Of a stretch of DNA of 64,000 nt, positions 10,264-62,958 are shown piece after piece. The stretch lies in assembly GCA_002917775.1 (NCBI GenBank), contig KZ627160.1:132917-196916 (forward strand), written 5' to 3'. The notes below the pieces were generated by a model. That model made no database searches. It was not told the DNA's origin and was given only the letters and a program-made list of their open reading frames with translations. Made by a program: the position numbers and the translations under genes. Each line of letters starts with the position of its first letter. The stretch's first letter is position 1. This DNA comes from Glaciozyma antarctica PI12. Lineage: Eukaryota > Basidiomycota > Microbotryomycetes > Kriegeriales > Camptobasidiaceae.

Positions 10264-13001
10264 ATGCCCAACCTATCAGTCAAAGACCGGCGTGACAAGG
10301 CTCAAGTCACGCAGAAGGAGCTTCTAGTCTCGCGTCGCGAAGGTCGCGAGCTGGACGAGGCGAAAGCGAGTATCGCGCAGCTTGAGCGGCAGCTGGCCGA
10401 GGCGAATGCGGCGAGGGGAAACAACGGGAACAAGGAGGATAAGTCGGCGTTCAGAGTGCTGGAGAAGGAGCTGAAGGAGGAGAGGAAGAAGGTGAGTTGG
10501 TGGTTCGTTGGTCAGATGAAGGTGGGAGGCTGCTTCGACAAGGGATTCGCGATGCAGTCAAGCGAGCGTTGTGCTGGACGGGCGCTGATTCTTCTATGCA
10601 GGTTGCGCGACTCGAGGAGGAACTCGCCGAGCAGTACACCGTCCAAGCGCGTCTCCAGGCCGAACTCGACGTCGTGCAAACCAAGCTCGACCAGCACGAC
10701 CCCGGTGCCATCACCCAGCTTCGCTCCGAGCGCCAAACGGAATTCGAAGATCTCGTATCGAAGCTTAAGGCGAAAACCACGGAGCTCAAGGCGTCGAACG
10801 AGAAGGTCGCCTCGCTCGAGAGGCGCATTCGTTCGCTGGAGCAGGAGAAGCAGGCTGTGATTATGGAGAGGAACGATGCGTTGACGGAATGTCTCGAGAA
10901 GAAGAAGGCTTATTGGAAGGAGGAGGGAAAGGCGCTGGAGGCGGCGAAGAAGGCGCAGGGGGAGCTCACGAAAACGCAGAAGGAGCTTGCGAAGGCCGGC
11001 TCGAAGCTGCGAACGCTCGAAGGCGTCGCCAAAGCCGGTGCGGAGGAAGATGGTGTAGAAAAAGATGGGGAGCCTTCAGGGAGCGAGGCTGATGGGCCAG
11101 GTGCGTACGACGAGGCGAAGGAACCGACCTGCTTTGCGAAGCCGTGAGTCTCGCTACCGACCTCGTAAAAACGAACTGACGCAGATCATCGTGCAGTCCT
11201 CTCTCGGCCCTCGACGTGGCGAAAGAGCTCCGCACCGCAAAGGAGAAGCTCAAGACCCAGACGAAGAAGATCGAGGACCTCAACACTCGCCTCGCTGAAG
11301 CGGATCAGGTCAACGCCAGGTGCGTCGATTCCGCATCTGCGAAACTGCTAATCTCACGCATTCTCCCAGATCTCGTTCCACCGAAGCCGAATTACACGTC
11401 CAGAACTCGAAGCTCGAGAAAAAGCTTTCCGCCGCTGAGAGCAAGCTCGAACGTCTCGCGTCCATCGAGGCCGAATGGAAGACCAAGTCCTACCAGTGCG
11501 CCCTCCCTCCTTCCTTTTCGTGGTACAATGACCTGATGCACTCTTTGCAGACTCATGACCGAAATCTCGACGCTCCAGTCCGACCTCGAAGAAGCGAAGC
11601 AGCAGCGCAACTCCGCCATCCAGGAGCTCCTTCTCAAAAAGGACGAGCTCGCCAGCCCCCTAGCTTCGCACGCGCAACGAGTTGACTCTCTCGAAGGCCG
11701 CTTGCAGCAGTCGGAATCGAACGTTGCCAGCCTCGACCAGGACCTCCAGGAGGCGCACGCGACGATCTTCCGCCTCCAGTCCTCGTCGGAAGGGAACGGC
11801 AACAAGCGCGATAAGCGTGAGCAGTATGTGGAGGTCTCTTCTCGCTCGGTCGATGCGCGCTAACGCCTCGCTACCCAGGTTGAGGTCGCCCGTCTCCTCC
11901 GTCGGAGAACTTCAGGCCCGGAACACCAAGTTCGAGCACGATCTCTGGCTTAAGGACGAGGAGCTCATCGCCGTCAAGACTGCGCACGCGAAGGAGGTCG
12001 CCTCGCTCCGGTCCCAGCTCGCCGCGTCCACCGTCTCCTCCGAACTCTCCGCCACTCGCAGCGGACTGTCGGCGCGCGAATCTCGTATCGCAGCTCAGGA
12101 TCGCGAATTGGTAGCGCTTAAGTCGTCGCCTCTCGGAGCTCAAGTCACTCGTCTCGAGAAAGAGCTCGCCGCTGCGACTGCGACGAACGCTCGCCTCGGT
12201 CCCATCGAAGGGAGACTCGAGCAGTGCGTCGTTCGCTCGTCTTTCTGCTGATCACTGATCGCTATCGCAGGTACAAGACGAAAACCTCCACTCTGGAGTC
12301 TGAGAACAAGGCCCTCACGAAGCGCAACTCTACCCTCGCCCGCGACCTCAAGGTCAAGGAGAACGAGCTCATTCTCGTTAATACCTCTCACGCGAACCGC
12401 CTCGCTCAGCTCGAATCGGAACATTCCAAATCGACCTCCACTCTCCTCTCAACAATCACTCTCATTGGAAGCGACCTCGCAGACGCGCAAGCTCAGGTTC
12501 CGCTTACGACAGCAACTTCGGAGGAGCTCGCTATCTCGGCGAAGAGGGAGAAAGTCGAGCTGAGGGAAGCACGCGAGGAGGCTAGGAGATATTCTGAGAG
12601 GGTTAAGAGTTTGGAGGACAGGGTTAGGGAGTTGATGCAGGAGAAGGAGGGGTCGAGTGCGGAGGTCCGGAGCGGAAGTTTCGCAGGGCAGAGTGCGTCG
12701 CTTCATGGTTCTCTCCTGGGGAGCAAGCTGACACCACAGCGCAGGTGCGGCGGCGAGCTCCAGCACCTATCCGACTTCGGTCAACTCGACTGCTCGACCC
12801 TCTCTCAACAACTTCACGCAAGGCGGCTCGGAGCACTCGAAGTTCGTCGTTCAGCAGCTCGTGTCGTCGATTCGAGGCCTCAACTCGGCGAACGTCGCGC
12901 TGAGAGACGAAAACAGTTCGTCATTCCTCACTTACATTCGGTACGGAGCTGATGAACTTCGAGCAGCGGCGTTGCTGTTGCAGCTTGTGGGGGTTGAGTG
13001 A
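10264..13001 (+). CDS. Coiled-coil family member A (intact reference copy, 758 residues)
   Basis: Unrecognised protein, almost entirely predicted coiled coil. Nine exons fit base by base: 10264-10491, 10602-11143, 11185-11319, 11370-11495, 11551-11823, 11879-12223, 12271-12692, 12745-12915, 12967-13001, giving 759 codons with stop. N-terminus MPNLSVKDRRDKAQVTQ is basic, then heptads (LDEAKASIAQLERQLAEA). Middle exons repeat a theme of LEKEL / LE..LEQ followed by YK, each joined by a phase-2 intron splitting CA|G. A Ser/Thr-rich linker precedes the C-terminal cassette SKFVVQQLVSSIRGLNSANV, whose last intron (12916-12966) splits the Thr codon as A|CG before ALLLQLVGVE and the stop. No membrane segment or signal peptide. 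Close paralogues flank it, so it is a member of a local expansion. A structural or scaffolding role is only a guess. Confidence 0.8.
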
Positions 13002-13106
13002 GATGGAGGGAAGGAAAGAGCGGAGGAGAGAGCACGCTGAGGAATACCATAAGGTGCGAGCTGAGAGCTGAGAGATGACGAGTCGAGAGGAGAGTTCCAA
13101 CAACAT

Positions 13107-15216
13107 CTATTGCACACCGACCAGTCGTATAATAGAGAAGCTAGAGTTTCCGGGAAGAGGAGAACGGCACGCACTGTTGGAGCTTGTAAGAATGCGTTGG
13201 CAGCCTGCAAGCTGGCGACCATCGTCGCGAACTGACCGAGGACGAAATCCCCGAGTGTTCGACGAGCGCCGAGTTGAGTTGGGGTTGTGGCGGTGGTGAT
13301 AGAGCGATGAGAAGCAGAGGTGGTACAACTTGGTGAACTGCGAACCAAGAGAGAGATCAGCAGCGATCAAGAGAGTGCGAACGAAAAGACGCACCCGCGA
13401 CTTCGACCTCCCACAGCCCCGTGAGCCACCCGGTCTCCCCCCTCAGATCCTCCATCCTCCCTTCCACACGCTCAGCAGCCACGCGCCACTTCTCCTGCAC
13501 ACGCACCGCCACCTCCAGCCGCACCTCCTCGTCCCTCCTCCCCTCCTCCACCTTGCTCCTCGCTACTCCCTCTCGCAGCTCCCTCAGCTCCTCTCGCCTC
13601 CTCGGCGTATCCTTAATCGGAGCCGGCGCGCTGGGCTGAACGACCTCGATGTTCTGCTCAAGCCGATCTTGTTCCGCCGAGAGTGAAGAGACGGCAACGT
13701 CCTGAGCTTCGGCTTTCAAGGTTTGAGCCGTTAGTGCCGGTACGTCCTCGCTGAAAGCTAGGTCGGCGGAGCGATTCGATAGGTCGCGTCGGAGGTCCTC
13801 GAGCGTGAGGCGTGAGGCTTCGGACTTGGAAGTGGGAATTAGCAGGGGTGAAGCATGAGCGAGGGGGGAATAGCGCACTCGTCGATGAGGTCGCGATAGC
13901 GGGCCTCGAGAGTCGTTTGGAGCGAGATGATCTCGGAGTCGGAGCTGTGAAGACGTAAGCCAGCAGAGCTGGGAAAGCGGAAGGTGTATCAGCTTATGCG
14001 ACAAGCTGTTTTTCGGAAGCTTGGCGGCCTCGAGGCGGGAGATCTTGGACTTGTATCTGCAGCTCCATCCTCAGCTCAAGCGAAGAGACGACGGAAAAAA
14101 AACGCACTGCTCTGGCGTCCTGACGACCGTCGCAAGGTCTCGCTCGAGGAGAAGGATCTTGGACTCTGAAGTGGAGAGCTTGTCTTGCAGCCGACCGAGC
14201 TCCGATTTGTACGAGGAATCAATGTAGGTCTGGAGGAGGTGAAGCTCATTCTGCGTGAGGGCGAGCTCCGCGTGAGGCTCGCGTTGGCGGTGATGAGAGC
14301 CGCGTTGGCGGCGTTGAAGTTCTTCTTGAGTACTTCGAGAAAGTCCTGAGCTCGAAAGCTGGAATTGGGTCAGCGGCGTACGTGAGGGAAGATGATGAAG
14401 AGCGCACCTGCTGATGTTCTTGGCATCTCGAGCTACGGTAGACTCGAGCTTCGAGAGTTGTGCTACGATGGAAGTGAGAGTTGGAGACGGAATGGCGCGA
14501 GTGTCCGGGGAGTCGAAAAGGACCTCGTTGGGGGGAGAAGGAGGTCGGCGCTGAGAGTTGGGCGTTGAGCGTTGAGGGACAGTAGTCCTCCTTGAGGGGG
14601 GATTTGTCCTTCTGCGCAACAACGAGGTTCGCTGCGGACGCGGCGAGCTGCTCCTGGAAGTCTGCCTTGCGCGAGTCGAGGCGCTGGTAGTCGGCAAGAT
14701 GGCGTTGTCCTCGGCCATCGTCGCAAAAGCCTCCGTCGCCGCGGCCGCCTTTTTCGTCGCCAGATTCCCCTTCGTCACCTCCCTCCGCAGCTGCGCAGGG
14801 CCGTGATTGTCCTCCCCTCCGCCGCAGTCTTCTCCTTCGCCCGCTCCCGCGCCTCCCCCTCAACCCTCCCAACGATCTCCGCCAAAGACGACACCTTCTC
14901 GTGCAGTATCCGTAGCTCAGCATTCTTGTCGTTGACCTGCGCGAACAGCGTGTCGAGCTCGACGCGTTGCTGGGAGTCCGAGAAGAGGGCCTTCGAGTCG
15001 TCCTGTTCGACCCCGTCCGTCGCCTGCTCTCGTCTTCGCTTTCGTCTTCGAACAATCTTGAGCGCCGCAAGCTCCTCCTCCATCACAAAGACCTGCCGCA
15101 CCGACATCAGCTCCCGTCCTCCCCACTCTCTCCCGCCTCGAAAACAAGCTCACCTTGTTCCACTCCCTCCTGCAGCTCAATCTCTCGCGCCTCGGGCTGC
15201 TCCTTGTACGATACAT
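13107..15216 (-). pseudogene. Coiled-coil family member B, decayed by several frame breaks
   Basis: Family similarity is clear in pieces: MYRTRSSPRRERLSCRREWN then VFVMEEELAALKIV after an intron, ADYQRLDSRKADFQEQLAAS, DFLEVLKKNFNAANAALI, ELALTQNELHLLQTYIDSSY, YKSKISRLEAAK, DSEIISLQTTLEARYRDL, and the cassette parts DFVLGQFATMVASLQAANAF and RLVGVQ before TAG at 13107. These pieces lie in different frames with no splice sites to reconcile them: breaks fall near 14790, 14700, 14285, 13260 and 13120. The CA|A-TAC phase-2 intron and the last-intron position survive, so it descends from a spliced family gene. It is tail to tail with A, 105 bases apart. Five or more breaks make pure sequencing error unlikely. 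Boundaries are approximate. Confidence 0.7.
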
Positions 15217-16292: not shown

Positions 16293-18052
16293 ATGGCCGT
16301 CAGCAGCGCCAAGGAGCGGGCGGACTCAGGCGCTATCGCGTCGCTAGTGGAGCTGCAGAGAAAGGGGGAGGAGGACGAGGGGATTAGGCTGGAGGACTTT
16401 CAAGCGCAGGTTGACCGGCTGAAGGTAGAGCTGGTGGAGGCGAGAGCGGCGAAGGAGACTACGGGGGACAAGGCGGGGACGGGGACAGCGTACGTTCTCT
16501 TGTCGGTTCTTGCGAGCGGGAGGTTAGCTTACGGGATTTCGTAGAAGCGGTTCTACATCTGTGACAGACGAGAAGGTGGAACTCGAGGAATTCCAGGCGT
16601 CGGTCAACAAGGTCAAGGAGGAGCTAGCCGAGGCTCGAGCTGCTCGAAGAAAAGACCTCGAGGCGATTGGTAGAGAGCTTGGGGATGAGAACGAGGGAGG
16701 ATTGGCTCCAAGGTGTGTTCTCCACGCTCGCGGGAGACACGAGCACGCCTCACGCTTTCTCACTTCGCAGCGAAGGATCCGCTGTTCTAGCTGTGTTGCG
16801 CGAAGAACTGTCGGTCGCGCAGCGCGCTCTCGCCAGCCGGACTGAGGAGGTGGAAAATATGCTGAAGGCAAGGGCGGAACGGAAGGCGACGTGCGTCGCT
16901 CGTCTTGGCTCGCTTCGCCGACACCAACTCACACGCTCCTCCCTGCAGCCACATATCTCAACTACGCGAGCTCGAGGCTGGGTTCTCGAGCCGCCTGGAC
17001 GAGGTGAGTGCCGCCAACGAGGCAAACCTGGAAAAGGTCAAGGCGAACGTCCTGGAGGTTATCAATGTGAGCAAGGAGTGAGTGACCCGCTTCCACGTCT
17101 CGTCAGCGGATTAATCTTTACCGCAGGTCTTCAGGCGATACCTCGACCCTCAGAGATCGCATCAAGGTTCTCACGGAGCAGTGCGCCACCGCCCTCAAAT
17201 CCGTCTCGCTCAAGACAACCGAACTCGCCGCCGAGAAGGCCTCAAGAGTAACGCTGCTCAAGGAAGTCGAAGGACGACTCGGCATCCGCGTCACCCACCT
17301 CGAGAAGGAGCTCGCGACTGCCAGAGCGGCTAACAAGAAAGCAGAAAGGTACGTTCTTCCTCCGATCACTCTCTCACTCGAACTAACGAGGTCCCCGCAG
17401 TTACAAATCCCGTATCACGACGCTCGAAAGCGCGCTCGAGACCTGCACGAACAAACACGCGGCTCTCGGTCGCGTTCTCGGCGTCAAAGACATCGCGTTC
17501 GAGGCACTGTTCGCTTCTTCCGTCGCGAGTGAGGATGAGGTGAAGAGGTTGGAGGAGAAGCTGAGAGAGGTGAAGGTGGTGGCGGAGGCGGTGATGAAGG
17601 AGAAGGATGAGGCGACGTGTGTTTTGAGGAACCAGATCGCGGGGATTTCGGCGGAGCTGAGGAGCTTTCAAGAGGGTGTCAAGCTGCTCAAAGTCGAGTA
17701 TGAGGAGGAGAGGAGAGTGTGGAAGAGCCTCGGAACTGCCGGTGCGTCCTCGCTGGCCTTTTCGACGACCGACCGCTGACGATACTCCAGCCGCCGACAT
17801 TCCTTCACCACCCCCACCTCCGTCAATCTCACAACCCCCCTCCCTCCCATCCCCCCTCCACTCTCACTCAGCACTTGTCCAGCACTCGGATTTCGTACTC
17901 CCTCAGCTCCTCAAGATGATCGACGACCTAAATCTCGCCAACACCGTGCTACGAACTTCGAACAGTACGTTCCTCTCTCTCCTCCACCTGCTCCTCGCTG
18001 ACTCTCCATCGTAGCATCGTTGCTGCTGCGCCTCGTTGGCATCGAGGTCTGA
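16293..18052 (+). CDS. Coiled-coil family member C (nearly intact)
   Basis: Starts MAVSSAKERADSGAIASL at the ATG 16293, a different N-terminus from A, then heptads. Later exons join in phase: ...LAP|S-EGSAVLAVLREELSVAQ, THISQLRELEAGFSS, SSGDTSTLRDRIKVL, YKSRITTLESALETC, a linker AADIPSPPPPPSISQPPSL, and the cassette ALVQHSDFVLPQLLKMIDDL with its last intron splitting A|CA before SLLLRLVGIEV and TGA at 18052. The only problem is the first junction: exon 1 ends in phase 2 at a GTACGT donor near 16492 while the reading DEKVELEEFQASVNK needs phase 1. That is one base out, so either an assembly error or an early truncation. No membrane segments. Confidence 0.65.
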
Positions 18053-18366: not shown

Positions 18367-19695
18367 ATGCCCTCCTGCACCAAAGAACGCCGCGACGAAG
18401 GCGCTGTCTCGCAATGAGGACGCCTGAACGCCCGTCGCGAACTCGAAGCGAAAGCTGCAACAGATCAGCTGGTCAAGGAAGCTCAAGGCCAAGAGGAAGG
18501 AGCTCAAGGCGTCGAACGATTAGGTCGTTTGGCTCGAGGAACGGCTGCGGAAGTTCGAGGGGGACTACCGAGAGCTGAGGGAGGAGAAGGCCTCCCTGTC
18601 GGAGGCTCGTCGCGCGAATAGCACTTTGCAGGAGGATCTCACTGCAAAGGATATGCAAGAGCTTGCGGCGCATAGAAAAGTGCACAGTTTGTTTTTTTGA
18701 CGAGCTGAGGAGCTGCTGGAAGCTTGCGCAGGAGGTCGTGATCCGAACGAGAAACGACATCCAGCAGCTCTGCGAAGGGTAAGATTCCTTGACCCCATCG
18801 CCACGAAAGCGTCGCTAATCGGTCGTGCAGAGACGAGAAACTCAAGGCCGAACTCTTTGTCGCGATGGGAGACTCGAAGGTCGCTCAGCTGGAGCGGGAG
18901 CTTGCCAAACTCCAGGCCGCCAACACTCGCCAGCTCGTCGACAATGCGAGGGAGGTTGATATGTTTGTGCTCGACCGCTCTGGAATCATCAAGCTAATCT
19001 AATCAGCCTTGCGAATCGCAGGCACCAGAGCCAGCTTCTGACCCTCGAGCATTCCGAATCTCGCGTGACCTCCCTCGAATCGCAACTATCTACTCTGCGC
19101 TCCGAATCCTGAGCCAAGATCATCTGCCTAAAAGCCCAGCTCGCCTCCGCTCAGCAGATATGCGCTACGAGCTCGACGGACGTTCTCGCCACCGCTGCGA
19201 AGCGGGATCAGGCCGAGCTTCAAGCGGCGCAGGAGGAGGCGAAGACGAATGCGGAGCAGGTTTTGAGCTTGGAGAAGAGGGTGAGAAAGCTTTTGGGGAC
19301 GGAGGAGAGGAGGAGGGGGAGCGAGAACGGTCTTGCTGCGAAGGGTGCTGGTGCTTTTCGACTTGTTGTGTCTCCCGCGTTTCCGCCGGGTTGCACGGGC
19401 TGTTCCTCGTCCTGGGAGTCCTCGGTCGCTCCCGTTTCGACTCTCTGCTCCTCCCTTGCCATCCGAGGAGAACTCGCAGTTCGTCGTTCAGCAGCTCCCG
19501 TCGACGGTCGAGGGGCGAACGTTGCCCTGAGGAGCGAGAACAGTTCGTACTCTCCTTCGAAATCATGTGTGTAATGGCTTCTGAACGTATTTTTCAGCGG
19601 CGTTGTTGCTCCAGCTCGTCGTCGGAGGAGGGAGTTTGGTAGCGAGTGCCTATCTGCATGTTTTGTTTCGATGGGAATTTGCCGCTTATCGATAA
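18367..19695 (+). pseudogene. Coiled-coil family member D, decayed (in-frame stops)
   Basis: The N-terminus MPSCTKERRDEGAVSQ aligns with A (MPNLSVKDRRDKAQVTQ) but the next codon is TGA; the frame then resumes as GRLNARRELEAKAATDQLV. Further family segments are LKASND followed by a stop, VVWLEERLRKFEGDYRELRE, LREEKASLSEARR, VAQLERELAKLQAANTRQL, LLTLEHSESRVTSLESQL then a stop, and AELQAAQEEAKTNAEQVL. The cassette SQFVVQQLPSTVEG is followed by a small deletion relative to A, then ANVALRSEN in another frame and, after a recognisable last intron, ALLLQLV. At least three stops and one indel; no splice arrangement removes them. Its 3' third is close to A and E at base level, so the copy is fairly recent. 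Confidence 0.75.
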
Positions 19696-19853: not shown

Positions 19854-19865
19854 CAATCTCTCAGC

Positions 19866-21728
19866 ATGGTTCCTCAGCTCAAAGGCCGGCGGTACAAGGC
19901 GCAGGTTGCGCAGGTTGCGCAGGGAGAGCGACTGGAACAACGCCGGGAGGAGCGCGAGCTGCTCGAAGCACAGGCGACGATAGAGCGGTTGCAACAGGAA
20001 CTGGCGGCGGCGAAGGCTTCTGTGGCCGGAGGAGGCGGAGGGGAGCTCAAGGGGGGGCTTAAAGCGTTCGAGAAGGAGCTGAAGGATGAGCGGAAGAAGG
20101 TGGGTTCGTCCTGTACCTCCTGAAACAGTCGCAGAGCTTACCCGTTCTGGCGCAGGTCGCGGTTCTCGACGAGCAGCTCGCAGCGGGGAAGATTTTACAA
20201 GAGCACCTGAACGCCGAGCTTCTCGCGCTTCAAGCTCGCGGAGATCAGCTCGAGGAGCAGCTCAGGACGTCGGCGGAGAAGGGGGAGCTGTTGGAGAGGC
20301 GGCTTCGATGGGCTGAGGAGGACAAGAAGGCTGGGAGGGTCAGCTGCCGGGAAATGATTAGGGAGAGGGAGAGTCTGAAGAGAAGGTGGAGATGAGTCCA
20401 CGCGATGGGGGAAGAGAGTGCGAGAGCTGATGGGGTTGCAGGTCGGGCATCTTCAAGGGGAGGTCGAGGGCCTGCGGAAAGAGTTGGAGCAAGCGAGGGA
20501 GAAGATCGTCGTGCTGAGACGAAAGGCCGACGCCGGAGTCCTAGGAGTTGTTCAGGCCCTGACGGCGGTGAGTGCTTCTGCGGAATGTGGGAGACGGGGC
20601 GCTCATCAGTCGGTCGTGCAAGACGATGCCAGCGGCGATGGCCTCGTGTCGAGGGCTGTACCCGGGTTGGTCCTTCGCTCGCTCGTAGAGACGCCGATTA
20701 ATCGTTGCGCTTCCTCTGCAGGCTTTGGAATGCCAAGCGAGATCTCGAATCGAAGCTTCAGCTCGCCACCAACTCGCTATCGGCACGAACAGCCGAAGTG
20801 GAGAAGCTCACCTCCGAAGTTAAGGGGCTTCGCAAGTCCCAGTGCGCTCGTCTTTCCCCCGAGCGCTGGAAGAACGCTGAGTTCCAAATTCGCAGATCTT
20901 CAGCGAGCTCGAGAGTCGCGACGATGGAGTTCAAGATCACGCAGCTTGAGAAGGACCTCGCCGCTGCCAACGCCGCGCGTCTCACGCCGGTACAGGCTCG
21001 ACTCGACGAAACGCTTCTCAAGCTCGCTGAGAGCACCAAGACCGTCGAGCAGTACGTCCCTCTCTCCTCTCTCCACCACGAGCCGCTAAGCCTTCGCATC
21101 GCAGCTACAAATCCCACTCGGCCTCTCTCAAGTCCTCCAACCTCTCTCTCAACCTCGAAATCAAGCACCACGCCGCCGATTTCTCGCATCAAGTGGAACA
21201 GATTACTGCACTCGAGACCCAGCTCGCTGCCGCGAAGACGGATCGAACGGAGAGCGTGACGCAGGTCGCGGCGCTGAAGGCTCGATTGGTGGAGGTCGAG
21301 AAAGAGAAGTGGGAGGAGGCAAAGAAGGGGGAGAAGGGAGCGGGAGTGAAGGGGAGGAAGGAGATGTTCGAGGAGCGGGTCAAGGAGGGCGGTGCGGTGG
21401 GGGGGAGGAGGAGGGGTGAGAGTGTTGGAGAAGCTGGTGAGTCCATCTTCCGCCTGAATCTCCCATGTACTAATCCTGCCCCCTTGAACAGCTTCGACGA
21501 CGTTCAGTTCGGCGACACCAACATCGACGAATCGCACCTCAGACTCCGAAGACCAGTCGCAGTTCGTCGTTCGTCAGCTTATTTCGACGGTACAGGGTTT
21601 GGAGGAGGATAAGGTGGCGCTGAGGAAGGAGAATAGTGAGCTTTCGCTTTCTCGCGGGGCTGGAGGTTGTTGCTGATGGCGGTGGGACAGCTTCGCTTTT
21701 GATGAGGTTGATGGAAGTGGGGCGATGA
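19866..21728 (+). pseudogene. Coiled-coil family member E, two unresolved frame breaks
   Basis: The start MVPQLKGRRYKAQVAQ and heptads RREERELLEAQATIERLQQE are family-typical, and the first intron joins KK|VAVLDEQLAAGKILQEH as in A. Frame is then lost twice: near 20385 before VGHLQGEVEGLRKELEQARE, and at the junction before LWNAKRDLESKLQLATNSLS (about 20722). From there it reads cleanly: MEFKITQLEKDLAAANAAR, YKSHSASLKSSNLSLNLEI, then the cassette SQFVVRQLISTVQGLEEDKV with the last intron splitting A|CT before SLLMRLMEVGR and TGA at 21728. With two corrections it would be a full gene, so an assembly problem cannot be excluded; called a pseudogene provisionally. Confidence 0.55.
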
Positions 21729-22440: not shown

Positions 22441-25123
22441 CAGGGCCTCGTTATAAAGCTCGAAAGAACCGTGGGCGAGCTACTCGACGAGCTACACGAC
22501 GAGCGAAATAGGCTTTATGAATTTGTAGACTGGCAGGGTCTAGGAACTCGGAACTGCGAGCGAGAAGGTCTCGGAGCTGGAGGACCGCCTTCGCCTCGTT
22601 GAGCACGACAAGATGGTTCTGTTGGAGGGAGAAGAGGCGCAGTCGACGGAAGTGGGTGCTGCTGAAGGAGATTTGGCGGAACGGAGGGAGGAAAGGGTCG
22701 GCCAGCTGCACGGCGAGGTTGCAGACGCGATGCTGGAGAGGGACAAGGCGAGGAGCGAGGCGGAGACGGTGCGGAAGGAGATGTTGGATTCGGGGAAGAA
22801 GCTCGCAAAGATCCATAGGCAGATCGCTGCCGCCGAACAGCGGTCCTTGTTGATGGGGAATGAGGAGTACAGGAGGATCAACGAGATGAGGAGCGAGGCA
22901 GCGGCGTTCGTCTTTCATTCGAATCTCTCGCTCGTCAAGCTGACCTGGGCTACCATGCGCAGGAGGTCTGCTGGAAGAGACGAGCTTTCCATCACGAAGA
23001 AGGAACTGGTCGCGCGTCTTGCGGAGATCAAAGCTCTCAAAGCTAGCGTCGCCCAGCTCAACGCTTCGTTCGTCCTTGTATGCCTTCTCAGCAAAGCCGA
23101 AGACTGACGAAGTACGACGCAGTGCTATATCGAACGCTTGCGAATTTCGCAAGAAGACCGCGCAGATTTGGAAGGACCTCGCCTCCGCCGAAGCGGAGAA
23201 GAAGAAGTCCTCGCAGTAAGCGTTCTGCCTCGGTTCCACCCTCGACTTGACTGACAGCGGACTGCAGGTACCTTGCCGAGATATCGTCCCTAAAGATTGA
23301 GCCGAAGGACTCGAAGGAACGCCACGCGATCACCGCTCAGAAGCTCTCGCTCAAGACGGACGCCCACGCCGCCGCCCTCAGCTCCCATGCAGCCTTCACC
23401 GAAGCCCTCGAATCCAAGCTTAGCAAGTCTGAAGCGAGGGTTGCTCAGTTCGAACTCGACCGGAACCCCTCGTCGCCCTCTACCGCTTCGGCGCCGGCGT
23501 CGAGTGATCGGAGCGAGAGCGCGCAAGTCCCCGCGAATCTCGACGAGCAGTGAGTGGTAAACCTCCTTTCCACCATCCCGCAAGCTGACGGTAATTCCAA
23601 ACCGCCGCAGAGCTACTTCGCCTCAAACCGCTTCTCATGAATCGCTCGCAGACCTTCGAACCGAAAACTCGAAACTCGGCCAAGAGCCCTCTCGCCGGGC
23701 GAGCTTCGCACGCGGCGGCGGTCACGTCTCTTCAAGCTCAGCTCTCCGAATTGGCTTCCACCGCATCCGTAGAGCGCGCAGCTCTTGAACGAAGTGTCGC
23801 TGCTCGGGACCGTGAGCTTCGCGCTCTCGTGGCGTCTCCCAGTACCTGCGACGTGGACGCCAAAGTCGCTCACCTCGAGAAGGAGCTCGCTGTCGTCACA
23901 TCCGCCAACGCCGACTTTATTTCTATCGAAGCCAAGCTCGAGCAGTAAGTCGCTGCTCCGGATCTCAGATTCTCCGCTGATTTGAGGATCGCAGGTGCAA
24001 GGAGAAGATTTCGACCCACGAAGCGTCGAGCAAGGCACTGGCGAAGCAGAACTCGTCCCTCGCTCGCGACCTCTCCCTCAAGACTGACGAACCCGCCGCC
24101 CTACGGACCGCCGAGTCGACGCACATCACCTCTCTCGAATCCGAACTCGCCAACTCCATCGCCGACCTTTCGGCGATCCTCTCCAAGAACGCCACACTGC
24201 AAGATCGGCTCGTTTCGACGTCGTCGACCTCGTCCAAATTGGACGTGACGCTGAGCCGCCTGAAGGAGGAGCTGTCCTTGGCCAAGGTCGCGATTGCTCG
24301 TCTAACTCCTCTGGAGATGCAGCTCAGCGAGAGCGGCAGGAAGCTCCAGGAGTACGTCCTGCTTTTGCTAAGTCTGAACGGCGCTAAGCTCTCCTCTCAC
24401 AGGTCTCAAGCACGAATTGCTTCCCTCGAAACTTCTACCCGCGCTCTTAAGAAGAACAACTCGGCTGTCACTCGCGACCTCTCCACTACCCAAGCCTCGT
24501 GCGAATCCCGCATCACAGCTCTCGAATCGGAACTCGCCACCGCCACCCACGACGTCACCGAGCTCCAATCGACCAACTCTCGCCTCGAGAATGACCTCGC
24601 AGCGCAGGATCGCGAGATCTCGAGGTTCAAGGTTTCGACTCCACCAGCGAGCCCGAAATCGTCGAAGAAGGACTCCGGACTTGCTGCGAAAAGGAGGGAC
24701 GTCCAGTTGATGGAGGTGCAGGAGGAGGCGAGGAGAAATGCGGAGAGAATCGGGAGCTTGGAAGCGAGGGTGCAAGAGCTTGTGCATGAGGTCGAAGTGG
24801 CGAAGATGGACGGTGGTAGTAGTGAGTCCTCCCTCTTCGGCCGAGCGAGGTTGCGACGCTGACTCTCTCAGGCTACACGCCATCCGCGCGACCTTCATCG
24901 TCAGCCGCGTACTCGACTTTGCCTAGCTCGGCGTCGCAGGCTTTGGAAGATCGTTCAGCGATCACTATCGAGCGATTAAGGTCGGCACTTGCGGGCCTCA
25001 GCGAAGAGAACGAGTCGTTGCGGAGGAAGAACAGTGAGCCCTCTCGCTACGCTCCTCCGTGCGTGCTGATCGTTGTCGTTTCCAGCGACGCTTTTGATGG
25101 AGCTCACCGCCGGCGAGGGGTGA
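22441..25123 (+). CDS. Coiled-coil family member F (5' end unresolved)
   Basis: Readable from about 22560: SEKVSELEDRLRLVEHDKMV matches the A segment NEKVASLERRIRSLEQEK. Then LDSGKKLAKIHRQIAAAEQR, LSITKKELVARLAEIKALKA, a Ser-rich block, VAHLEKELAVVTSANADF, and two successive exon repeats starting CKEKISTHEASSKAL (24000) and SQARIASLETSTRALKKN (about 24404), each after the CA|G or GA|G phase-2 intron. The C-terminal cassette is the most diverged of the long copies (ITIERLRSALAGLSEENESL) but the last intron is in the usual place, A|CG before TLLMELTAGEG and TGA at 25123. The start codon and first exons are not established, and the upstream coil ELLDELHDERNRLYEFVD is in another frame, so the 5' part may be broken. 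Confidence 0.55.
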
Positions 25124-28942: not shown

Positions 28943-29911
28943 TCAAAACCACCACCTGAAGCCCGTCCTCCCCCTATCCGCCTTCGCCTCAGCAAGCTGC
29001 GTCTCAAGCCCCGCACATCGTTTGTTCGTCCTGCTCAAATCAACAGCGAGGGAAGCATTCGTAGCCTTGAGAGACGCGCAGCGGCCCTTGTACCTGCGGT
29101 ACAACAGTCAGTACTCATTTGGGTAGCTCAAAAGACAGAGGACGAACGTCTCGAGCATACGGGTGGTCGAGTCGAGCATGGAAGTCGTCTTGTCCAGCTT
29201 CCCTTGTTGATGTGTGCAGCTAGCGTTCGCGTCGGCGAGATCCTTCTCGAGCTGCGAAGCGTAGCGACCAGTGGTCCAAGATTCGTAGCTCGCGGATTCG
29301 CTGCAGGAACGCCCATCAGGCATCGATAATGGCGCGGGCGAAGAAGCTCACAGAGACTTGCGAAGACCATTGGCCTGTTCCTGCAAACGGTTCTCCACCA
29401 CCTTGCGCTCCTCCCCAGCATACCTCAAACGTCTCCTCAAGACATCGTCTTGCGCCAACGCAGTTCTGAGCTCGCCTTCGACATGATCGACGAGGGACTG
29501 GCGAGCGAGGAGCTCGGCGTCGAGGCGCTCCTGGACGACCTTGTTCTCCGCGATCTGATCGTCCTTCAGCTCGAGCTGTTTTTCCAGAAGAGCCACCTGC
29601 GCCTCCAAGTCAGCTCCAGCTCAATGCCACCCCAGCAGACCTCTCCGGAGACTTCCCCTCTGGCAGTCCCCTTCGAAGCGGCTACTCACCTTCTTCCGCT
29701 CCTCCTTCAGCTTTTTATCCCACAGCTTACGCTCCTCATTTCCCCCTTGGCCTGCTCCTCCAGCACCGGTCTTCGCTTCCGCCAACTCCCGCCGAAGTTG
29801 ATCGATCGTCGTCCGAGCTTCGAGCAGCAGCAGCTCCCGGCGGCGGTGCTCGAGTCACTCTGTCTGCGCCAGCTGAGCTTTATCGAGGCGGTTCTTCAGG
29901 TGGGGAGCCAT
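28943..29911 (-). pseudogene. Coiled-coil family member G, short, with an in-frame TGA
   Basis: The ATG at 29911 gives MAPHLKNRLDKAQLAQTE, clearly the family N-terminus, then TGA, then the same frame continues LEHRRRELLLLEARTTIDQL without further stops to KLKEERKK, where the first family intron falls. It continues VALLEKQLELKDDQIAENKV, ERKVVENRLQEQANGLRKSL, CESASYESW..., a block ending MLDSTTRMLET, and YKGRCASLKATNASLAVDL after the usual phase-2 intron. It ends TGFRWWF at TGA 28943 with no linker and no FVxxQ / LLLRLVG cassette, so the 3' half is missing. One stop plus truncation suggests a pseudogene; an alternative downstream start is possible but would drop the basic N-terminus. Confidence 0.6.
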
Positions 29912-30493: not shown

Positions 30494-33474
30494 TCAGAAG
30501 CGAACGCCAACGAGGCGCATGAGCAACGACGCTGCGAGAGAAAAACGTTAGCGAGCAGCTTCGCCATCGAGAGCGCGCGACGCACTGTTGGAGTTCCTGA
30601 GCGTCGTGTTCGCCTCGTTGAGTTCCTTGACCGTCGTGACAAACTGCTTGAAGACAAAGTCGGAATGCTGGACGAGTGCCGCGTGGGTGGGGTTGTGGGT
30701 TGAGAACGCCTGAGCAGGTGTGGGGGTCGTCGCGATGACCGGCGAGGGCTGGGGAGTGGCCGTGGGTGGCGAAGGAAGGGCTAGAAGTGGTGTCGGTGGC
30801 GAAGGCAGGGCGAGGAGCGGCTCTGCGAAGAAGGGATCGTCAGCGGCAAGCCAAAGGAACCGAAAGAACGACGTACTGGCAGCCTCGATAAGTCCCTGAC
30901 TCTCCGTCCCCTCGTTCCTCCGCTCCATCGCTGCCACCCTTTTTCCCGCCTCCGCCGTAGCCATCAACAGCACCTCCATCTTCTCCTCCAGCGTGGCCAG
31001 TAGTTCGCTCGCGGCCTTCTCCCCTTCGATCCTCCTCAAAGCCTCCTCCTCCAACTTCTTCCCACCCTTCCTCACCTCCTCCTTCGCCTCCCCAAGCTCC
31101 TTCTTCGCCACACCCAATTCCGCCTTCACCGCTCGCAACTGCTCCCTCGCCACGCCCAACGCCTCTTTTGCCTCCTTCAGCTCCTTCTCCCTCGGCTCCC
31201 GCTCCACTTTCTCCCTCTCCCTCTCCCCTTTCTCCACCCTCACCGGCTCCGGCCCCTTCAGCAGCTCCTTGATCCTCCCCTCCTGCTCGGCGATCTTGTC
31301 CTCGAGCAACGTATTCTTCGAAAGGAGCGCCGAGAGCCCCGCGACCGAATTGGACAGTTCGGATTCAACGCTCGTGATGTGGGTCGAGTTGGAGGATTGG
31401 ACGAGGGTAAGCTCGTTCGACTTGAGGCTGAGGTCGCGGGCGAGAGTCGAATTGTCGGTCTTGAGGCTCTTGTAGCTCGCTTCGAGAGGGGAGAGCTTGG
31501 ATTTGTACCTGCGCAAGGGTCAGCTTTGCAACGAAGGAGGAGAGAAACGAACGTACTGCTCGAGCTTCTTGCTATCCTGCGCGAGTCGTGCGTTCGCCGA
31601 TTTGGACGCGGCGAGCTCCTCCTCGAGCTTCGAGACCTTGTCCTTCCACTGCGCGACGGACGGTTCCGCCCAGCCTGGCGCCGAAGGCTCCTCCTTCAGA
31701 ACGTCGTGACGGAGGTGGTGTTGGAGAGTATCGGGTTCGGCTTCGAGCGAGTCGATGTACGTCTTCTGGGAGTTTTGCACGGCGAGGAGCTCGTTCTGTT
31801 TGAACGAGAGAGCTTCGTCGAGTTCGGCGTTGCGCGAGGTGAGGGTGGCGATGCGAGGAGTGAGTTCGGCGATGGTGGATTCGAGCTGGGCGATCTTGAT
31901 CTTGTGTCTGCGAGATGCTTCGTCAGTCGAGCACCGGAGAGATGAGAGGGGGAGGACGCACTGATCGGGCTTTTTGTTGCTCGCGTGAGCCATCTCGAGC
32001 GCGCGCTGGAGTTCGGCGACTTTCGAGTCCGACTTGGAGACTTGAGATCGAACCGCGTTGAGTGCCGCATCTTGCGCGTCTTGAAGGTTGGCGAGTTCGG
32101 TGGTCTTGCGGGCGAGAGACTGAGTCGCCGCAGCTCGCTGCTCGTTCAGACTCTTGACGGTCGCCTTGAGGTTGCTAGTCTCGTTCGAAAGACTGTGCAT
32201 CTGGTCGTCAGCAGAAACAATGAGCCAGGTGAGGAACGAACGCACTCGGAACGCATGCTTCTAACCTCCGCGCGAAGTGTATCGATAGTAGACTTGCTCT
32301 GGTATTCGCGCGTCGTCGCTTCCTTCACGGTCTGGTTGTAGCTGCATAAACGCCGACGCCAGGAGTCAGGAACCGCCTCGCACGACGGAAGAAGCGTACG
32401 CACAGCTCGTTGTTACTCTTGTACCGGGCGAGGATGTTGGCGCATTGTTTCTTCGCCGTAGCCAGCTCTTCGCGAAGCTCGTCGTGAGTCGAAGTAACGT
32501 CCCTGTCAATCCAGCAAAGTTAGCTCACGTAAAATGCGCTCAAGTACGGCCACTCACGTAGATATAACGCCCGACTTGCTCGCCTCGGCCGTCGCCTTGC
32601 GCGCTTTCGCTGCAGTCCTCCTCCGCCGCAGTCGCCTCCGCCACCGCCGTCTTCATCGCGATCTTCGCCGTGCGAAGCTCCTTAAACGCCGTCTCGGCCT
32701 CTTTCTGCGCCTCGTTCCTCTCCGCAACTGCGATCCTCAGCTCCTCAGCCCCAGGCCCGTCCGAAGTCTTCTGCTGGTCCTTCTTGACCTGACCCTTGGC
32801 TAAGCGCAACTGCTTCGCCGCCTCCTTCCTCGCCTCCTCCGCCTCCTCCGCGTCGACGCGAGAGCTCTCCTTGAGATCCTCGAGCTCGCCCTTCAAATCC
32901 TCGTTCTCCTCGAGCAGGACGCCCTTCTCGTAGTCGAGCGCGCGCTTCTCCTGATCTAAATGGCGAACACACTTCTCGAGCGCCGAAACTCGGTCTCGCG
33001 ACAGCTTGAGCTCGTGGTTCTTGTCTGAGAGCTTGGAGACGAGGTCCTGGTGCGCTGCTTGATGCTCGGCTTGCGCGGCGGCGAGGCCTTCTGGAGAGTG
33101 GAGGTCGACCTTCTTCTGCACCTCGACAAGCTGTATCTGAAGCTTCTCCTGCGCGGCTTTGAGCTCGACCGCCTCCTCCTCGAGACGAACGATCTGCGCC
33201 ACTCCGAATCAGCTCCCCACCTGCGTTGGGCCGCACGCGTGCTCACCTTCTTCTTCTCGTCCTTGACCTCCTTCTCGAGCACCTTGATCTGCTGCTTGTC
33301 GCCTTTATTCCACGTATCGTCCTTCCGATCCTTGGCCGAAGCGAGCTCCTTCCTCAGCTGAGCTACGACCGCCTTGGATTCTTCGAGCTCGCGCTCTTCT
33401 CTTCGCGCCTCGAGCTTGGCCGTCTGCGAGAGAGCAGCCTTGTCTTTGCGCTCCTTCATAAATCCTCCGGCCAT
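30494..33474 (-). CDS. Coiled-coil family member H (near full length, one frame discrepancy)
   Basis: One of the longest copies. ATG at 33474: MAGGFMKERKDKAALSQ, then LEARREERELEESKAVVAQL, first intron KKK|IVRLEEEAVELKAAQ, a long uninterrupted coil exon, and repeats joined by phase-2 introns: ...KKPDQ|HKIKIAQLESTIAEL and ...KKLEQ|YKSKLSPLEASYKSL. The linker has a repeated LLALPSPPT unit and Thr/Pro runs, and the cassette ALVQHSDFVFKQFVTTVKEL ends after the last intron (A|CG) in SLLMRLVGVRF, TGA at 30494. Every junction I checked is in phase except one: near 32615 the frame of VAEATAAEED must shift by one base to continue AAKARKATAEASKSGVIS and on into DVTSTHDELREELATAKK. With that base corrected the gene is complete. 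It shares the MAGGF start with I, head to head across 259 bases. Confidence 0.7.
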
Positions 33475-36700: not shown

Positions 36701-37071
36701 TTAGCGCAAACGATCGAGGAGGAGAGGGACCAATATCGAGTGCTCCGTGCTGCTCACATGGATCTAAGAGCGGGTGAGTCTTTAGCTCAGCGTCGTGTGC
36801 ACCGCTGATGTCTCCCGTCGCAGACGAATCACGATCTCGCCCTTCACCACTACCCACTCCTCCCCCTTCCTCCGTCGCCGACACATCAGCATTTTCCGAG
36901 CATTCAGATTTTGTCTTCCGGCAACTCGCATCGACAATCCAAGAGCTTCACAAGGTCAACACGGCTCTTCGTACCTCGAACTGTGCGTCGTCGTTCTCTT
37001 CGCAACCTGCTCCTCGCTGACCTTCCTTCGCAGCATTAATACTATTACGGCTTGTTGGGGTGGAGAATTAG
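33734..37071 (+). CDS. Coiled-coil family member I (near full length, one homopolymer frame discrepancy)
   Basis: ATG 33734: MAGGFSKPRDKVQVNQ, then LEGRREERQLEEALALIAKL. In exon 1 a run of six G (about 33914) puts the frame one base off: with five G it would read on as EHKILEKELKEERRK, the conserved end of exon 1, and join in phase to IVRLEEELAAVKILQEP. All later junctions checked are in phase: RFER|FKDSNTTLRNENAA, TPEG|ADQHLSSLEDSL, INL|LLDHIRPVISIPEV, EPEQ|YASQVASLRRALEE, LDQ|AKSEIISLKSTHKT. A Ser/Pro linker precedes AFSEHSDFVFRQLASTIQEL; the last intron splits T|CA and the end is LILLRLVGVEN, TAG at 37071. It has a run of ATG codons (MMMM) near 35761. As written the ORF stops at 33989, so this is either a one-base assembly error or a null allele. 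Confidence 0.65.
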
Positions 37072-40375: not shown

Positions 40376-41845
40376 ATGGTTGACTCTGCTTCGGGCGCTC
40401 TTTCATCCAGTACGGCAAGCCTCAGCCCCGCTCCACCGCCACCTTCGACGCCTCCTCTCGCTCAGGCAATGGAGCTGCTTGCGTTGTCTGAAGGAGGGTC
40501 CAACCTGGACGTCGAGGGGATTAGGTGTGCTCTGGTGCCCACGTGTAAGGAGCTCGATTCGGGGAGGGAGCGGCTTGTCGAGCTCGAGAAGCAGATGGCG
40601 GCTCCGTCCGAGGAGGCACCGTCTCCGAGGCAGGCTGAACGCACGGCGCGGCAGGCGCAGGAGCTCGCGTTCCATTAATTTTCGACATTATCGGTAGCTT
40701 GGACGGGGCGTATTAGGTACTGGGGCTTTCTGGAGCCTCCTCGGTGGACGCGGTTGACGAGCGATTCATCAAGGCAGCCGTGCGTGTCGTTCCCTGCTCC
40801 CTACGTACTGAAAAACTGACCTGCTGCGGTGGCAGTTTCCACAAAGCTCCGATTCGACCGACTCCTCGCGTAGCTCTCCGCGGCGAGATAAAGGAGCCGT
40901 CCTGACCATCGCCTCTCGGCGACCCGCCTGCGGCCTCGTGCTATTCGAAGGAAGGCGGCACCGCGCGCGGAGGCACCTCGCTCGTAGCCCTCCTCCATCC
41001 CGAGTATCGCGTCATGAGCTATGAGCTCTACTCGATTTTCTTCCTCGAAGCCGCCATGCACCTAACGAAGATCGATGTTGCCCTTGCAGACGGTTCGTTC
41101 AAGCGGTTGCAGACGGCCGTATTCGATCTTTTGGCGATGGGACCCGGCGGCGGCAAGGCTAGCGGCGCTGCTCGACGGCCGTAAGCTTCGGAGCCTCCGA
41201 CGAAGGGGAAAGAGCTTGATGCGGCACGCGCGACGATGAAGGGTCTTCGCGTCAAAAACGCTCTGCTGGAGGCTAAGCTTGGGGAGGCCGAGAAGCGTGC
41301 GAGTGCGAGCGTCGAAGAGAGCTCGCGCCTGGAGGAGCTGGAGGGGATGCTGGTGGAGGAGCGGGCGAGGGTGCGGTCTCTGGAGGAACGGCTTGGGAGC
41401 GTCGAGGAGGAAAGGCTGAGATCAGGACGGCCGGCGAGGCGGAGCGGGCGAGATTGCGAAGCGAGTTGGAGGATGTCTCAAGGGAGCTGCGTGCGAATAG
41501 TGCGTCGATTCTTCTTCTAGCACTGAGCTCATCGCTAACCCCGTTTTGCAGACAAACTGCCCGTCGCCATCACCACCCCGAAGCACGAAGCGAGTCCACC
41601 CTCACGCAGCAACACTAACTTTGTCGTCGCGCCTTTTGCCGAGCAAGTCAAGGTCCTCAACGCCGCGCTCCTACGCAAGACGGAAGAAAACAGTGAGTCG
41701 CTTGTTACACGTTTGACTCGAAGACGAGCTGACGGCGTCGGCAGCTGAGTTGCTGGTGCGGCTTGGAGCTGGAGACGTAGGGGGGGGGGGGACGGCGTGC
41801 TGTTCGAGGAGTTACTGCTGGCCATTCAAACGAGTCGACTGCTGA
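40376..41845 (+). pseudogene. Coiled-coil family member J (short type), degenerate
   Basis: MVDSASGALSSSTASLSPAP opens a Ser/Pro segment, then AMELLALSEGGSNLDVEGIR, RLVELEKQM and a stop at 40676. Nothing family-like is readable from about 40680 to 41200. It resumes KGLRVKNALLEAKLGEAEKR, RLEELEGMLVEERARVRSL, then a frame break near 41420 before GEAERARLRSELEDVSREL. The last exons are good: KLPVAITTPKHEASPPS, NFVVAPFAEQVKVLNAALL and, after the usual A|CT split intron, ELLVRLGAGDV. A run of 12 G at 41780-41791 follows. The cassette variant FAEQVK.LNAAL is shared with K and (less) L, marking a short subfamily. Confidence 0.55.
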
Positions 41846-57297: not shown

Positions 57298-57961
57298 TAC
57301 GCATTCAATGAATTGGGGAAGAGAGAACATGACAAGAAGCCGAAGTTGGGGAGGGAGGAGATTTCGGCGGCGAAAGTGCGCTCGGAGTTTGCGGCGAAGA
57401 GTAAGGAGCTCGAGGTCTCACGCGCGACGTCTCAGGGATTGCGCATCAAGACGGGGGTGTTGGAAAGGAAGCAAGAAGATACAGATTCGCGGGCGAACGA
57501 GAAGGGCAGAGAAGAGCTGCTCGAGAAGCGGTTAGAGCGAGTCGAGGCCGAGTTGGAGGCTACGAGGGAACGGCTTCCGAAGGAGGTGGAGGATCGGTTA
57601 CGTTGTATGAAGCTGAGGGAAATGGCAGACGCGGAGTGTTTCGAGCTTCGGAGGGAATTGGGAGAGGTGTCGGCGAAGCTCGAGTCCACAAATGCGTTCT
57701 CAGGCTCTGCCTCGCTGCGTCGCCTAGAGCTCACTCGCCGTGTCCTTTTTTGCAGAGGCTTCTACCCTCATTAACCCGTTGCCGAGCAGCGAACCAGATC
57801 CTTCATCGCGCACCGTCAAGTTCGCCCTCGCACGGTTTGCGGAGCAAGTCAAGACACTCAACGCCGCGCTCGCCCAGAAGGTTTCAGAGAACAGTACGTG
57901 TGTTTGTTTCCGTACACGCGTTGAAGCTGACCCGCGCTTCGTAGCTGAACTTTTCAGCTAG
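57298..57961 (+). pseudogene. Coiled-coil family member K (short type), 5'-truncated remnant
   Basis: Coil from about 57330: REEISAAKVRSEFAAKSKEL, LEKRLERVEAELEATRERL, FELRRELGEVSAKLESTN. The next intron donor seems lost: where J has AAT-A-GTGCGTC, K has AATGCGTTC. After a normal-looking acceptor (57765) it reads ASTLINPLPSSEPDPS and the cassette FALARFAEQVKTLNAALAQK, and the last intron splits A|CT as in all members, but the end is only ELFS, TAG at 57961. No N-terminal family motif exists upstream; the region instead overlaps the LRR-like fragment on the other strand. A decayed copy closest to J. Confidence 0.55.
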
Positions 57962-61456: not shown

Positions 61457-61553
61457 CGAGGCTAGGAGACTCTGCACTGGATGCGGGTTTGTGCATAGGT
61501 ACTGATTTGGATTGCTCAAGCGGGTTCTGCTTTTTTGACGGGAGTGGGGATGA

Positions 61554-62958
61554 TTACTGCTCTTCTCCGCCGCCGACGAGACGGAGCATGAGGTCGGCTA
61601 CGTGAGGCTAGTCAGAGGTCTGCTCGAGTCGAGGAAGGAGCGACGCACCGTTCCCGCCGTCTTTGCGGCCAGCGCGGCGTTGAGCGTGGTGACCGTCGCA
61701 GCAAGGCGTGCGATGACAAACTTGGAGTTGTTGGCCGCGGGTCCAGCGCTGCTTCCAGTCGTCGAAAGCGCCGCTCCGGGCTGACCAAGGGCGACAGGAA
61801 GAGCGAGCGCTGCGACGACGTCGTCAATTCCAGTGCCTCAGCTTCCAGCGCAAAACGAACTCACCTTTAAACCCTCTCCTCCACCTCCCTAACCCTCTCC
61901 TCCATCTCCACCACCACCACCTCCGCCCCCTCCCTCCCCTCCCTCTCCCTCGCTCCCTCTTTCTCAGCCCTCTCCGCCCTCGCCCTCTCCTCCTTCTCCC
62001 TCCTTTCACTCTCCCTCTTTTCGCCCTTGACCTTCTCCAAATCCTCCAACAGTACACTAACCTTCCTCGTCGGCCCCGCCCTCAATTTCCCCTCCGCACT
62101 CTCCGCCTTCGCTCGCCACGAACTCACCTCCCCCCGCGCGCTCTCAAGGTCCTTCCGCGCGCTCGCGAGCTGCGACTCCAATTTCGCCATCCGAGCTTTC
62201 TCGCTTGCATCGACTGGAGGAGGGTTGAGGTAGTGCTGGAGGAACGGGGTAGGCGGGAGGTCGAGCGAGGTGAGGTACGCCGTCAGTTTCGCGGTGAGGA
62301 GGTTCTGTAGCGCGGGAAGGAGAGCTGGGGTGGAGCGGGTGATGGAGAGGGTGTAGAGGGCTCCGTGGAGGGTTGAGGCGTTCGAGGGGTTGGCAGAGAG
62401 CTGTGAGGGTGTTAGGAGGGTCGTACCAGAGGGAAGGGGGGGACGTACTAGGGATTCGTAGATCGGGAGAACTTCCTTATCGCTCGAAACCTTGAGCACA
62501 TCCGACGCCTGCCTCTCCGACAGCCTCGCAAACGTCCTCGGTCGCCCTTCCTTCCCTCGAAGCTCCGCAACGACCGCTTCCCCAGCGCTCAATTGGCTCA
62601 TCAGCTGGTCCACCTGACGCTCCCACGTACGACGCTCTTCCTCCCAGCTTGCTTTCTCGCTCCCGAGGACGAGGAGCTGGGACTCGGACTGGGCGAGCGA
62701 GGAGCGCGCGTCGATGAGCTGGGATTCGAGCGAGGCGAGGTGCTGAGCGGAGTGCGTCGGAGAAGGTGGGAAAGCTGGGGGATCAAGGCTTGGTGTAGCG
62801 GCAGGGGTGAGAGGCTTGGGGAGGGCTGGAGGGGGTGCGAAGGTCGGTGTGAGGAAGGGCGAGGTAGTGGGAGCTGGGGCTGGGGTCCGGGACTGCGTGG
62901 CGAGACGCTCACGGAAGGCGCGGGCGCGATCGAATAACGCTTGAGAGGCGGCGGACAT
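61554..62958 (-). CDS. Coiled-coil protein L carrying the family C-terminal cassette
   Basis: ATG 62958: MSAASQALFDRARAFRERLA, a Pro-rich linker, coil LASLESQLIDARSSLAQSES, then a globular-looking region SERQASDVLKVSSDKEVLPI, STLHGALYTLSITRSTPALL, NLLTAKLTAYLTSLDLPPTP, and a strong coil KLESQLASARKDLESARGEV to EMEERVREVEER. An intron (weak donor GTTTAA or nearby) leads to DVVAALALPVALGQPG and the cassette SKFVIARLAATVTTLNAALA AKTAGT, then after a GTGCGT...CGTAG intron DLMLRLVGGGEEQ, TAA at 61554. The last junction is one base out of phase. The mid-region differs from A-I, so L is either the ancestral, conserved member from which the cassette spread, or a fusion. It is the only short-type copy with an otherwise healthy reading frame. 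Confidence 0.65.

What the first reader, a model, noticed from the sequence alone, without database searches (positions are those of the whole stretch)
10264..62958. A lineage-specific family of at least twelve coiled-coil genes or remnants (A-L) in one 53-kb stretch
Copies at 10264, 13107(-), 16293, 18367, 19866, 22441, 28943(-), 30494(-), 33734, 40376, 57298 and 61554(-) share two or more of: basic N-terminus (MxxxxKxRxxKxxxxQ), exon repeats, Ser/Pro linker, C-terminal cassette. They lie among ordinary housekeeping genes, in mixed orientation, with states from intact (A) to wreckage (B, D, J, K). This is a birth-and-death family I cannot name. In red-yeast annotations such proteins may sit under uninformative labels such as proteophosphoglycan ppg4; that is recollection, not a search.
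Basis: partly seen in the sequence, partly recalled or inferred. Interest (0 to 1): 0.85.

Follow-up and report, generated by a model that had tools for sequence, protein, structure and literature searches.

The report
Red-yeast coiled-coil gene cluster
A red yeast carries a crowded stretch of about a dozen related, partly broken genes for long rod-shaped proteins that look like multiplied and lengthened copies of an older gene also present in other red yeasts; what any of them does is unknown.

Summary
The family is real. Profiles of three modules (N exon, rod exon R, C cassette) recover 17 of 17 left-out modules, far above reversed-sequence decoys. All 12 listed places hold family sequence, but J, K and L share only a divergent C cassette with the rest. 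One more copy lies just left of the window and one remnant to its right. Outside contig C15 the one clear relative found is on C16.

The C16 gene has the same two ends and matching first and last introns. Proteins with these ends occur in three Rhodosporidiobolus species and Rhodotorula toruloides, none with a named function. So the family is older than this lineage; only the C15 cluster may be lineage-specific. Cluster proteins carry R exons (three clear in A, H and I) not recognised in the C16-type proteins. Copies run from open (A, H; C and E with last exons spliced by eye) to broken. N exon and alpha cassette show dN below dS.

Best reading: soluble coiled-coil rods with conserved docking ends, multiplied by birth and death. 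Their role is inferred, not shown. No link to 'proteophosphoglycan ppg4' was found.

The parts
10264..13001 (+). Copy A: nine-exon model, 742 aa, open; N exon 10264-10491, last R exon 12271-12692, C cassette 12810-12914, terminal exon 12967-13001
13107..15107 (-). Copy B: wreck; C cassette split over two frames (13193-13249), terminal exon remnant ending in LVGVQ-stop; start is the model's
16293..18052 (+). Copy C: open; weak N exon without the basic R[RK]xK motif, C cassette 17859-17963, terminal exon SLLLRLVGIEV-stop spliced by eye
18478..19642 (+). Copy D: remnant; DNA match to exon 2 of A (18478-18538, 82%), C cassette from 19453 broken across frames
19866..21728 (+). Copy E: N exon 19866-20099, C cassette 21530-21634; terminal exon SLLMRLMEVGR-stop spliced by eye (the predictor chose another acceptor)
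22613..25123 (+).
28943..29911 (-). Copy G: N exon with an in-frame stop near 29855-29857; no C cassette found
30494..33474 (-).
33734..37071 (+). Copy I: one-base frame change inside the N exon (33734-33959), rest open in the model; C cassette 36877-36981, terminal exon 37034-37071
40376..41845 (+).
57298..57961 (+).
61554..62958 (-). Copy L (beta type): C cassette 61655-61732; one-base frame change before the terminal exon (ADLMLRLVGGGEEQ-stop)

Best explanation
A cluster made by repeated local duplication of a C16-type Sporidiobolales coiled-coil gene (about 400-570 aa), followed by loss and decay. Each protein is a soluble, probably nuclear or cytosolic, dimer-forming rod. A short basic head (R[RK]xK, then RRExRELxE) and a zipper-like tail ending in ENTxLLLxLVGxE are docking ends; the rod between them is free to vary. 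In the cluster the rod carries a repeated exon module (R) that starts after a phase-2 intron and, in the inner copies of H, I and F, also ends in phase 2, so that it can be duplicated without breaking the frame. Because the tail is shared, cluster proteins could pair with one another and with the C16 protein, acting as length variants or competitors. Shown: homology, shared introns, decay, more conserved ends than rods. Inferred: direction of descent and gain of R, dimerisation, location, docking, competition.
For: Module recovery against decoys. The head occurs in C16 and in 6 of 6 other-species proteins; the full tail in C16 and 5 of those 6, since P0007 as annotated runs past it. First intron after KEERKK in phase 0 in A, E, H and C16; last intron phase 1 with a similar terminal exon in A, F, H, I, Z and C16, and in C and E by eye. 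R found at three places each in A, H and I (E < 0.01), best E 0.017 in C16 or P0001-P0007. Tree split A,E,H,I | C16 plus other species, 91.4/91. dN below dS in 6 of 6 N-exon pairs and 10 of 10 alpha cassette pairs. Heptad periodicity beats 100 of 100 shuffles in A, H, I, P0002, P0005 and 99 of 100 in C16.
Against: No expression data; the gene models are home-made and trained largely on the family itself, and several terminal exons were spliced by eye. One of three control proteins, a membrane protein, also beat its shuffles for heptad power (2.37). The tree is unrooted, so the duplication could predate the split from R. toruloides; a tail-only tree does not keep the cluster together (E and F group elsewhere at 26.7/32; J with C16 at 77.6/72). 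dS is 0.6 to saturation, so copies are not recent. R exons have dN/dS 0.3-0.9 over 15 pairs; two alpha-beta cassette pairs (H-J, H-K) have dN above dS. C and I lack R[RK]xK. Nothing shows dimers, partners or location.
Confidence: 0.5

Rival explanations
1. Neutral duplication debris: a duplication-prone locus made extra copies of one gene, now mostly decaying without a function of their own.
For: Six of the 12 window copies are damaged by a frame change, stop or truncation (B, D, G, I, K, L), and F has no recognisable N exon. A small unrelated gene beside I is doubled too. R exons have dN/dS 0.3-0.9.
Against: A, C, E and H read open over 7-10 model exons although dS is near 1 or saturated, longer than a neutral gene should last. 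N exon and alpha cassette show dN below dS in 16 of 16 pairs.
Confidence: 0.3
2. An arms-race family (meiotic drive, self/non-self recognition or host-facing) in which the fast-changing rods are the selected part.
For: Clustered turnover, variable rods between conserved ends, and fast divergence even between proteins of R. toruloides strains (82.5% identity, P0005 versus P0006).
Against: No strongly hydrophobic, membrane- or secretion-like stretch in the six family proteins measured (A, H, I, C16, P0002, P0005). No site-wise test for positive selection was made. Known fungal drive families, as recalled, look different.
Confidence: 0.1
3. Unrelated generic coiled coils that merely share composition.
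For: Low-complexity rods; Pfam and PDB matches are weak coiled-coil noise.
Against: 17 of 17 modules recovered against reversed decoys; shared intron positions and terminal exon; alpha-beta cassette score 34.5 against at most 16.3 in 200 column shuffles.
Confidence: 0.03

Closest known systems
Unnamed Sporidiobolales protein family: P0002-P0007 (Rhodosporidiobolus microsporus JCM6882_001863, R. poonsookiae JCM10207_004981, R. azoricus JCM11251_002045; Rhodotorula toruloides NBRC10512_007912, JCM10296v2_000519, RHTO0S04e04104g1_1)
   Same: Head KPR[KR]DK...RR[ED]NRE in 6 of 6; tail LxxTVxELN..LRxENTxLLL in 5 of 6 (P0007 as annotated runs past it); coiled coil; no Pfam family above cut-off in P0002-P0006
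   Different: 504-567 aa, R not recognised. One protein per strain was found within the limits of that search, against a cluster here.
C16 gene of the same genome (C16:231996-233685, minus)
   Same: Head, tail, first and last intron
   Different: Outside the cluster, 407 aa in the model, R not recognised; beside an aldehyde dehydrogenase-like gene (named by eye)
Birth-and-death gene clusters in general (recalled)
   Same: Local duplication in both orientations with open and broken copies
   Different: This protein family has no named function; the rod varies by exon duplication while both ends are held

Membership tests
Sporidiobolales P0002-type family | N-terminal head (basic motif, then RRE.RE) | tested here: met
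   A, E, H, I and C16 match N profiles; A versus C16 54% over 79 aa. Weak in C, broken in G and Z, not found in B, D, F, J, K, L.
Sporidiobolales P0002-type family | C-terminal tail ending in ENTxLLLxLVGxE | tested here: met
   Five alpha cassettes versus five other-species C-termini: hhalign probability 98.5, E 1.8e-15. Beta type: 92.0, E 6.5e-7, weaker.
Sporidiobolales P0002-type family | Shared intron positions and phases | tested here: inconclusive
   Met between C16 and cluster copies at the first (A, E, H) and last intron. Gene structures of other species were not available.
Proteophosphoglycan ppg4 (label) | Secreted, Ser-rich phosphoglycoprotein (recalled) | tested here: inconclusive
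   No strongly hydrophobic stretch in A, H, I (best 19-aa hydropathy 0.85-1.04); no signal-peptide program was run and glycosylation is untestable. 0 of 6 named relatives bear the label.
Any Pfam family | Score above the curated cut-off | tested here: not met
   A, C16, P0002-P0006: 0 of 7 proteins have a family above its cut-off. Nearest: NET2A on P0003, 30.8 against 33.1 bits. H, I and the other copies were not scanned as spliced proteins.
Birth-and-death gene cluster | Copy-number change between strains or species | not testable with these tools
   Only one genome of this group could be searched

The most novel reading that the evidence does not exclude
The cluster is a fast-evolving set of dominant partners of the conserved C16-type protein. 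By sharing its zipper tail while carrying rods of other lengths, the copies retune or poison whatever structure that protein builds, under an intragenomic or reproductive conflict.
Probability: 0.1. Interest if true: 0.75.

Novelty: new member of a known kind. Interest (0 to 1): 0.42.

Why it matters
It gives an unnamed gene family of red yeasts a working definition (head, tail, introns), an ancestor-like gene and a set of paralogues to test. It is also a clear case of a coiled-coil protein whose ends are held while the rod between them varies by exon duplication, which separates what such a protein must keep from what it may change.

Tried and rejected
Generic coiled coil: rejected by leave-one-out profiles with decoys, shared introns and a column-shuffle control.

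Named family by Pfam or PDB: only sub-threshold coiled-coil noise for the family.

Homologue search with copy A alone: nothing at E up to 1e-3 among 7994 scored candidates. I blame the word filter, because the masked head-R-tail alignment A4 later found 6 proteins among 8000.

Other hits in the genome: the DNA search gave a 74-base match on C11 (78%, E 2.6e-9); it lies in a Lys/Glu/Val-rich low-complexity frame where the N, R and C profiles reported nothing below E 0.1. L gave weak hits on C5 (0.002) and C14 (0.007), and J on C10 and C2 (0.3-0.4); I take these as coiled-coil noise, unchecked.

Link to ppg4: two papers hold 'proteophosphoglycan ppg4' and 'Rhodotorula' (passages read). No paper holds 'proteophosphoglycan', 'coiled-coil' and 'Rhodotorula'. 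No paper holds RHTO0S04e04104. Searches found no paper; some searches gave listings only, with nothing on this family among the rows shown.

tRNA or known RNA behind the inverted repeat at 15455-16004: none in the window. Plasmid match for a neighbouring stretch: none.

Faulty steps: a hand-made model of A was out of frame; the first predictor run merged everything and was retuned; an R-exon dN/dS table was out of frame and was redone; the scripts failed wholly or in part through option and file errors.
Full report
What was checked. The window is C15:132917-196916 of a 20.0 Mb genome in 18 contigs. Its nearest named protein relatives come from Rhodosporidiobolus and Rhodotorula, so I take it to be a red yeast of the Sporidiobolales; the species was not determined. 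Translated self-comparison found related pieces in both orientations across the cluster.

Observation. Three modules recur. N: the first exon, a basic head and then LExRREERELxEA...KELKEERKK. R: a rod exon starting near YKSKISxLEAS. C: a penultimate exon, HSDFVxxQLxxTIxxLNxANxALRxEN, followed by a short terminal exon such as SLLLRLVGVE-stop. Profiles built without the tested copy recovered 17 of 17 modules: C cassettes of A, C, E, H, I, J, K, L (E 1.1e-12 to 1.1e-5); N of A, E, H, I (5e-22 to 2e-14); R of A, H, F (two) and I (3e-23 to 2e-6). The best decoys, reversed proteins, scored 6-13 bits. For J, K and L the other beta copies stayed in the profile. Copies that trained no profile were found at B (6.7e-3), D (7.6e-5) and the left neighbour Z (1.5e-9) with the alpha cassette, and at G (4e-10) and C (4e-5) with N. 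So all 12 places are real, but J, K and L share only the cassette with the rest.

Beta type. An alpha-only cassette profile did not list J or K at E below 5 and gave L 0.084; a beta-only profile gave alpha copies only E of about 3, but found the remnant at window 82584 at 3e-7. Profile against profile, alpha and beta match with score 34.5 (probability 94), while 200 column shuffles reached at most 16.3; that test used terminal exons spliced by eye. J and K also break at the same place after the EN codons, with a phase-1 donor. I take J, K, L and that remnant as a second subfamily, less surely than the alpha copies.

Gene structure. A home-made predictor trained on the window, whose training set was largely the family itself, gave open models for A (9 exons, 742 aa), C, E, F and H. 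For C and E I spliced the terminal exon by eye; for H the second model includes the whole cassette, which the first partly skipped. The first intron is phase 0 in A, E, H and C16. The last intron is phase 1 in A, E, F, H, I, Z and C16. Introns of the rod are mostly phase 2; inner R exons of H, I and F are phase 2 on both sides in the models, the last R exon is 2 then 1, and A's inner ones are 2-1 and 1-2. Damage: in-frame stop in the N exon of G; stop and frame change in Z; frame change in the N exon of I; cassettes of B and D split over frames; K cut short; L shifted by one base before its last exon.

Where it lives. A search with H found C15 between 130 and 170 kb and one place on C16; the C16 protein gave the same picture. 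A cassette peptide found six C15 copies and missed C16, J, K and L. A J peptide found J and K, then noise. A DNA search with part of H also gave a 74-base C11 match in low-complexity sequence. These searches score only the best candidates, so counts are lower bounds. In C15:1-236916, of which six long stretches read N, the profiles found family sequence above decoy level only between about 129.9 and 215.6 kb. Neighbours are ordinary genes: PSD13/Rpn9 (9e-68), a protein kinase (6e-64), pantoate ligase (2e-32) and an NAD-binding dehydrogenase (8e-12).

Relatives. The C16 protein found P0002 in R. microsporus (E 1.1e-6) and a fragment, P0001 (58% over half the query). The masked alignment A4, which contained P0002, found six proteins: one from each of three Rhodosporidiobolus species and three from R. 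toruloides that are 82-93% alike and look like strain alleles. The search scored 8000 candidates of about 213-677 aa by the tool's length rule, so longer cluster-type proteins of those species could be missed; a single copy elsewhere is likely, not shown. The C16 tail, read from DNA, is KKLVKTVRDLNNTVMELRKEN and then TSLLLMLGGVE; the gene model had skipped part of it.

Descent. In trees of head plus tail, A, E, H and I separate from C16 and the other species (SH-aLRT/UFBoot 91.4/91; 92.5/87 with C and Z added), and the other species separate from C16 (99.6/100). Rooted on the other species, C16 is sister to the cluster; the unrooted data also allow an older duplication. The alignments are short, and the tail alone does not resolve this. 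dS between copies is 0.86 to saturation for N and 0.59-1.49 for R, so the duplications are not recent. dN is 0.38-0.56 for N and 0.28-0.73 among the five alpha cassettes, below dS in all 16 pairs. R exons are less constrained (dN/dS 0.3-0.9), and two alpha-beta cassette pairs have dN above dS. R is found at three places each in A, H and I, a weaker fourth in I (0.024), and without a convincing match in C16 or the other-species proteins (best 0.017). That the cluster gained R, rather than the others losing it, is inference.

Function. Heptad periodicity exceeds 100 of 100 shuffles in A, H, I, P0002 and P0005 and 99 of 100 in C16; two of three control proteins do not, one membrane protein does. 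No strongly hydrophobic stretch was seen in those six. R[RK]xK near the start occurs in A, H, C16 and P0002-P0007, not in C or I, and by eye in E; it fits a monopartite nuclear signal (consensus recalled) but also any basic head. From this I infer a soluble rod with two docking ends. Docking, dimers and nuclear location are inference.

Verdict. A real cluster in an unnamed family, whose ancestor-like gene is shared by other red yeasts. The mode of evolution is known; the split between fixed ends and a varying rod is uncommonly clear.

Noticed in passing
window 37571-38140 and 38460-38900, minus: Two neighbouring copies of a small protein that looks by eye like cytochrome c oxidase subunit VIII/VIIc; the second shows in-frame stops in a straight reading, possibly introns. 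Beside copy I, so the locus may duplicate other genes too.
   Followed up: partly
window 15455-15517 and 15942-16004: 63-nt inverted repeat, 90% complementary, about 350 and 290 bases upstream of the head-to-head copies B and C; suggests an inverted duplication with 5' flank. No tRNA or Rfam match in the window.
   Followed up: partly
window 9210-9277 and 9483-9550: 68-nt direct repeat, 87% alike, upstream of copy A
   Followed up: no
window 50909-51593: Short Gln/Gly/Pro-rich coding repeats, partly within a predicted 336-aa protein on the minus strand; no Pfam match
   Followed up: no
window 1-5510, minus: SNF2/Rad5-like helicase with a RING finger, named by eye from the model; RING just below Pfam cut-off. 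Copy Z lies directly downstream, and the predictor fused the two.
   Followed up: partly
window 59075-60283, plus: 402-aa open frame without a Pfam match, between K and L
   Followed up: no
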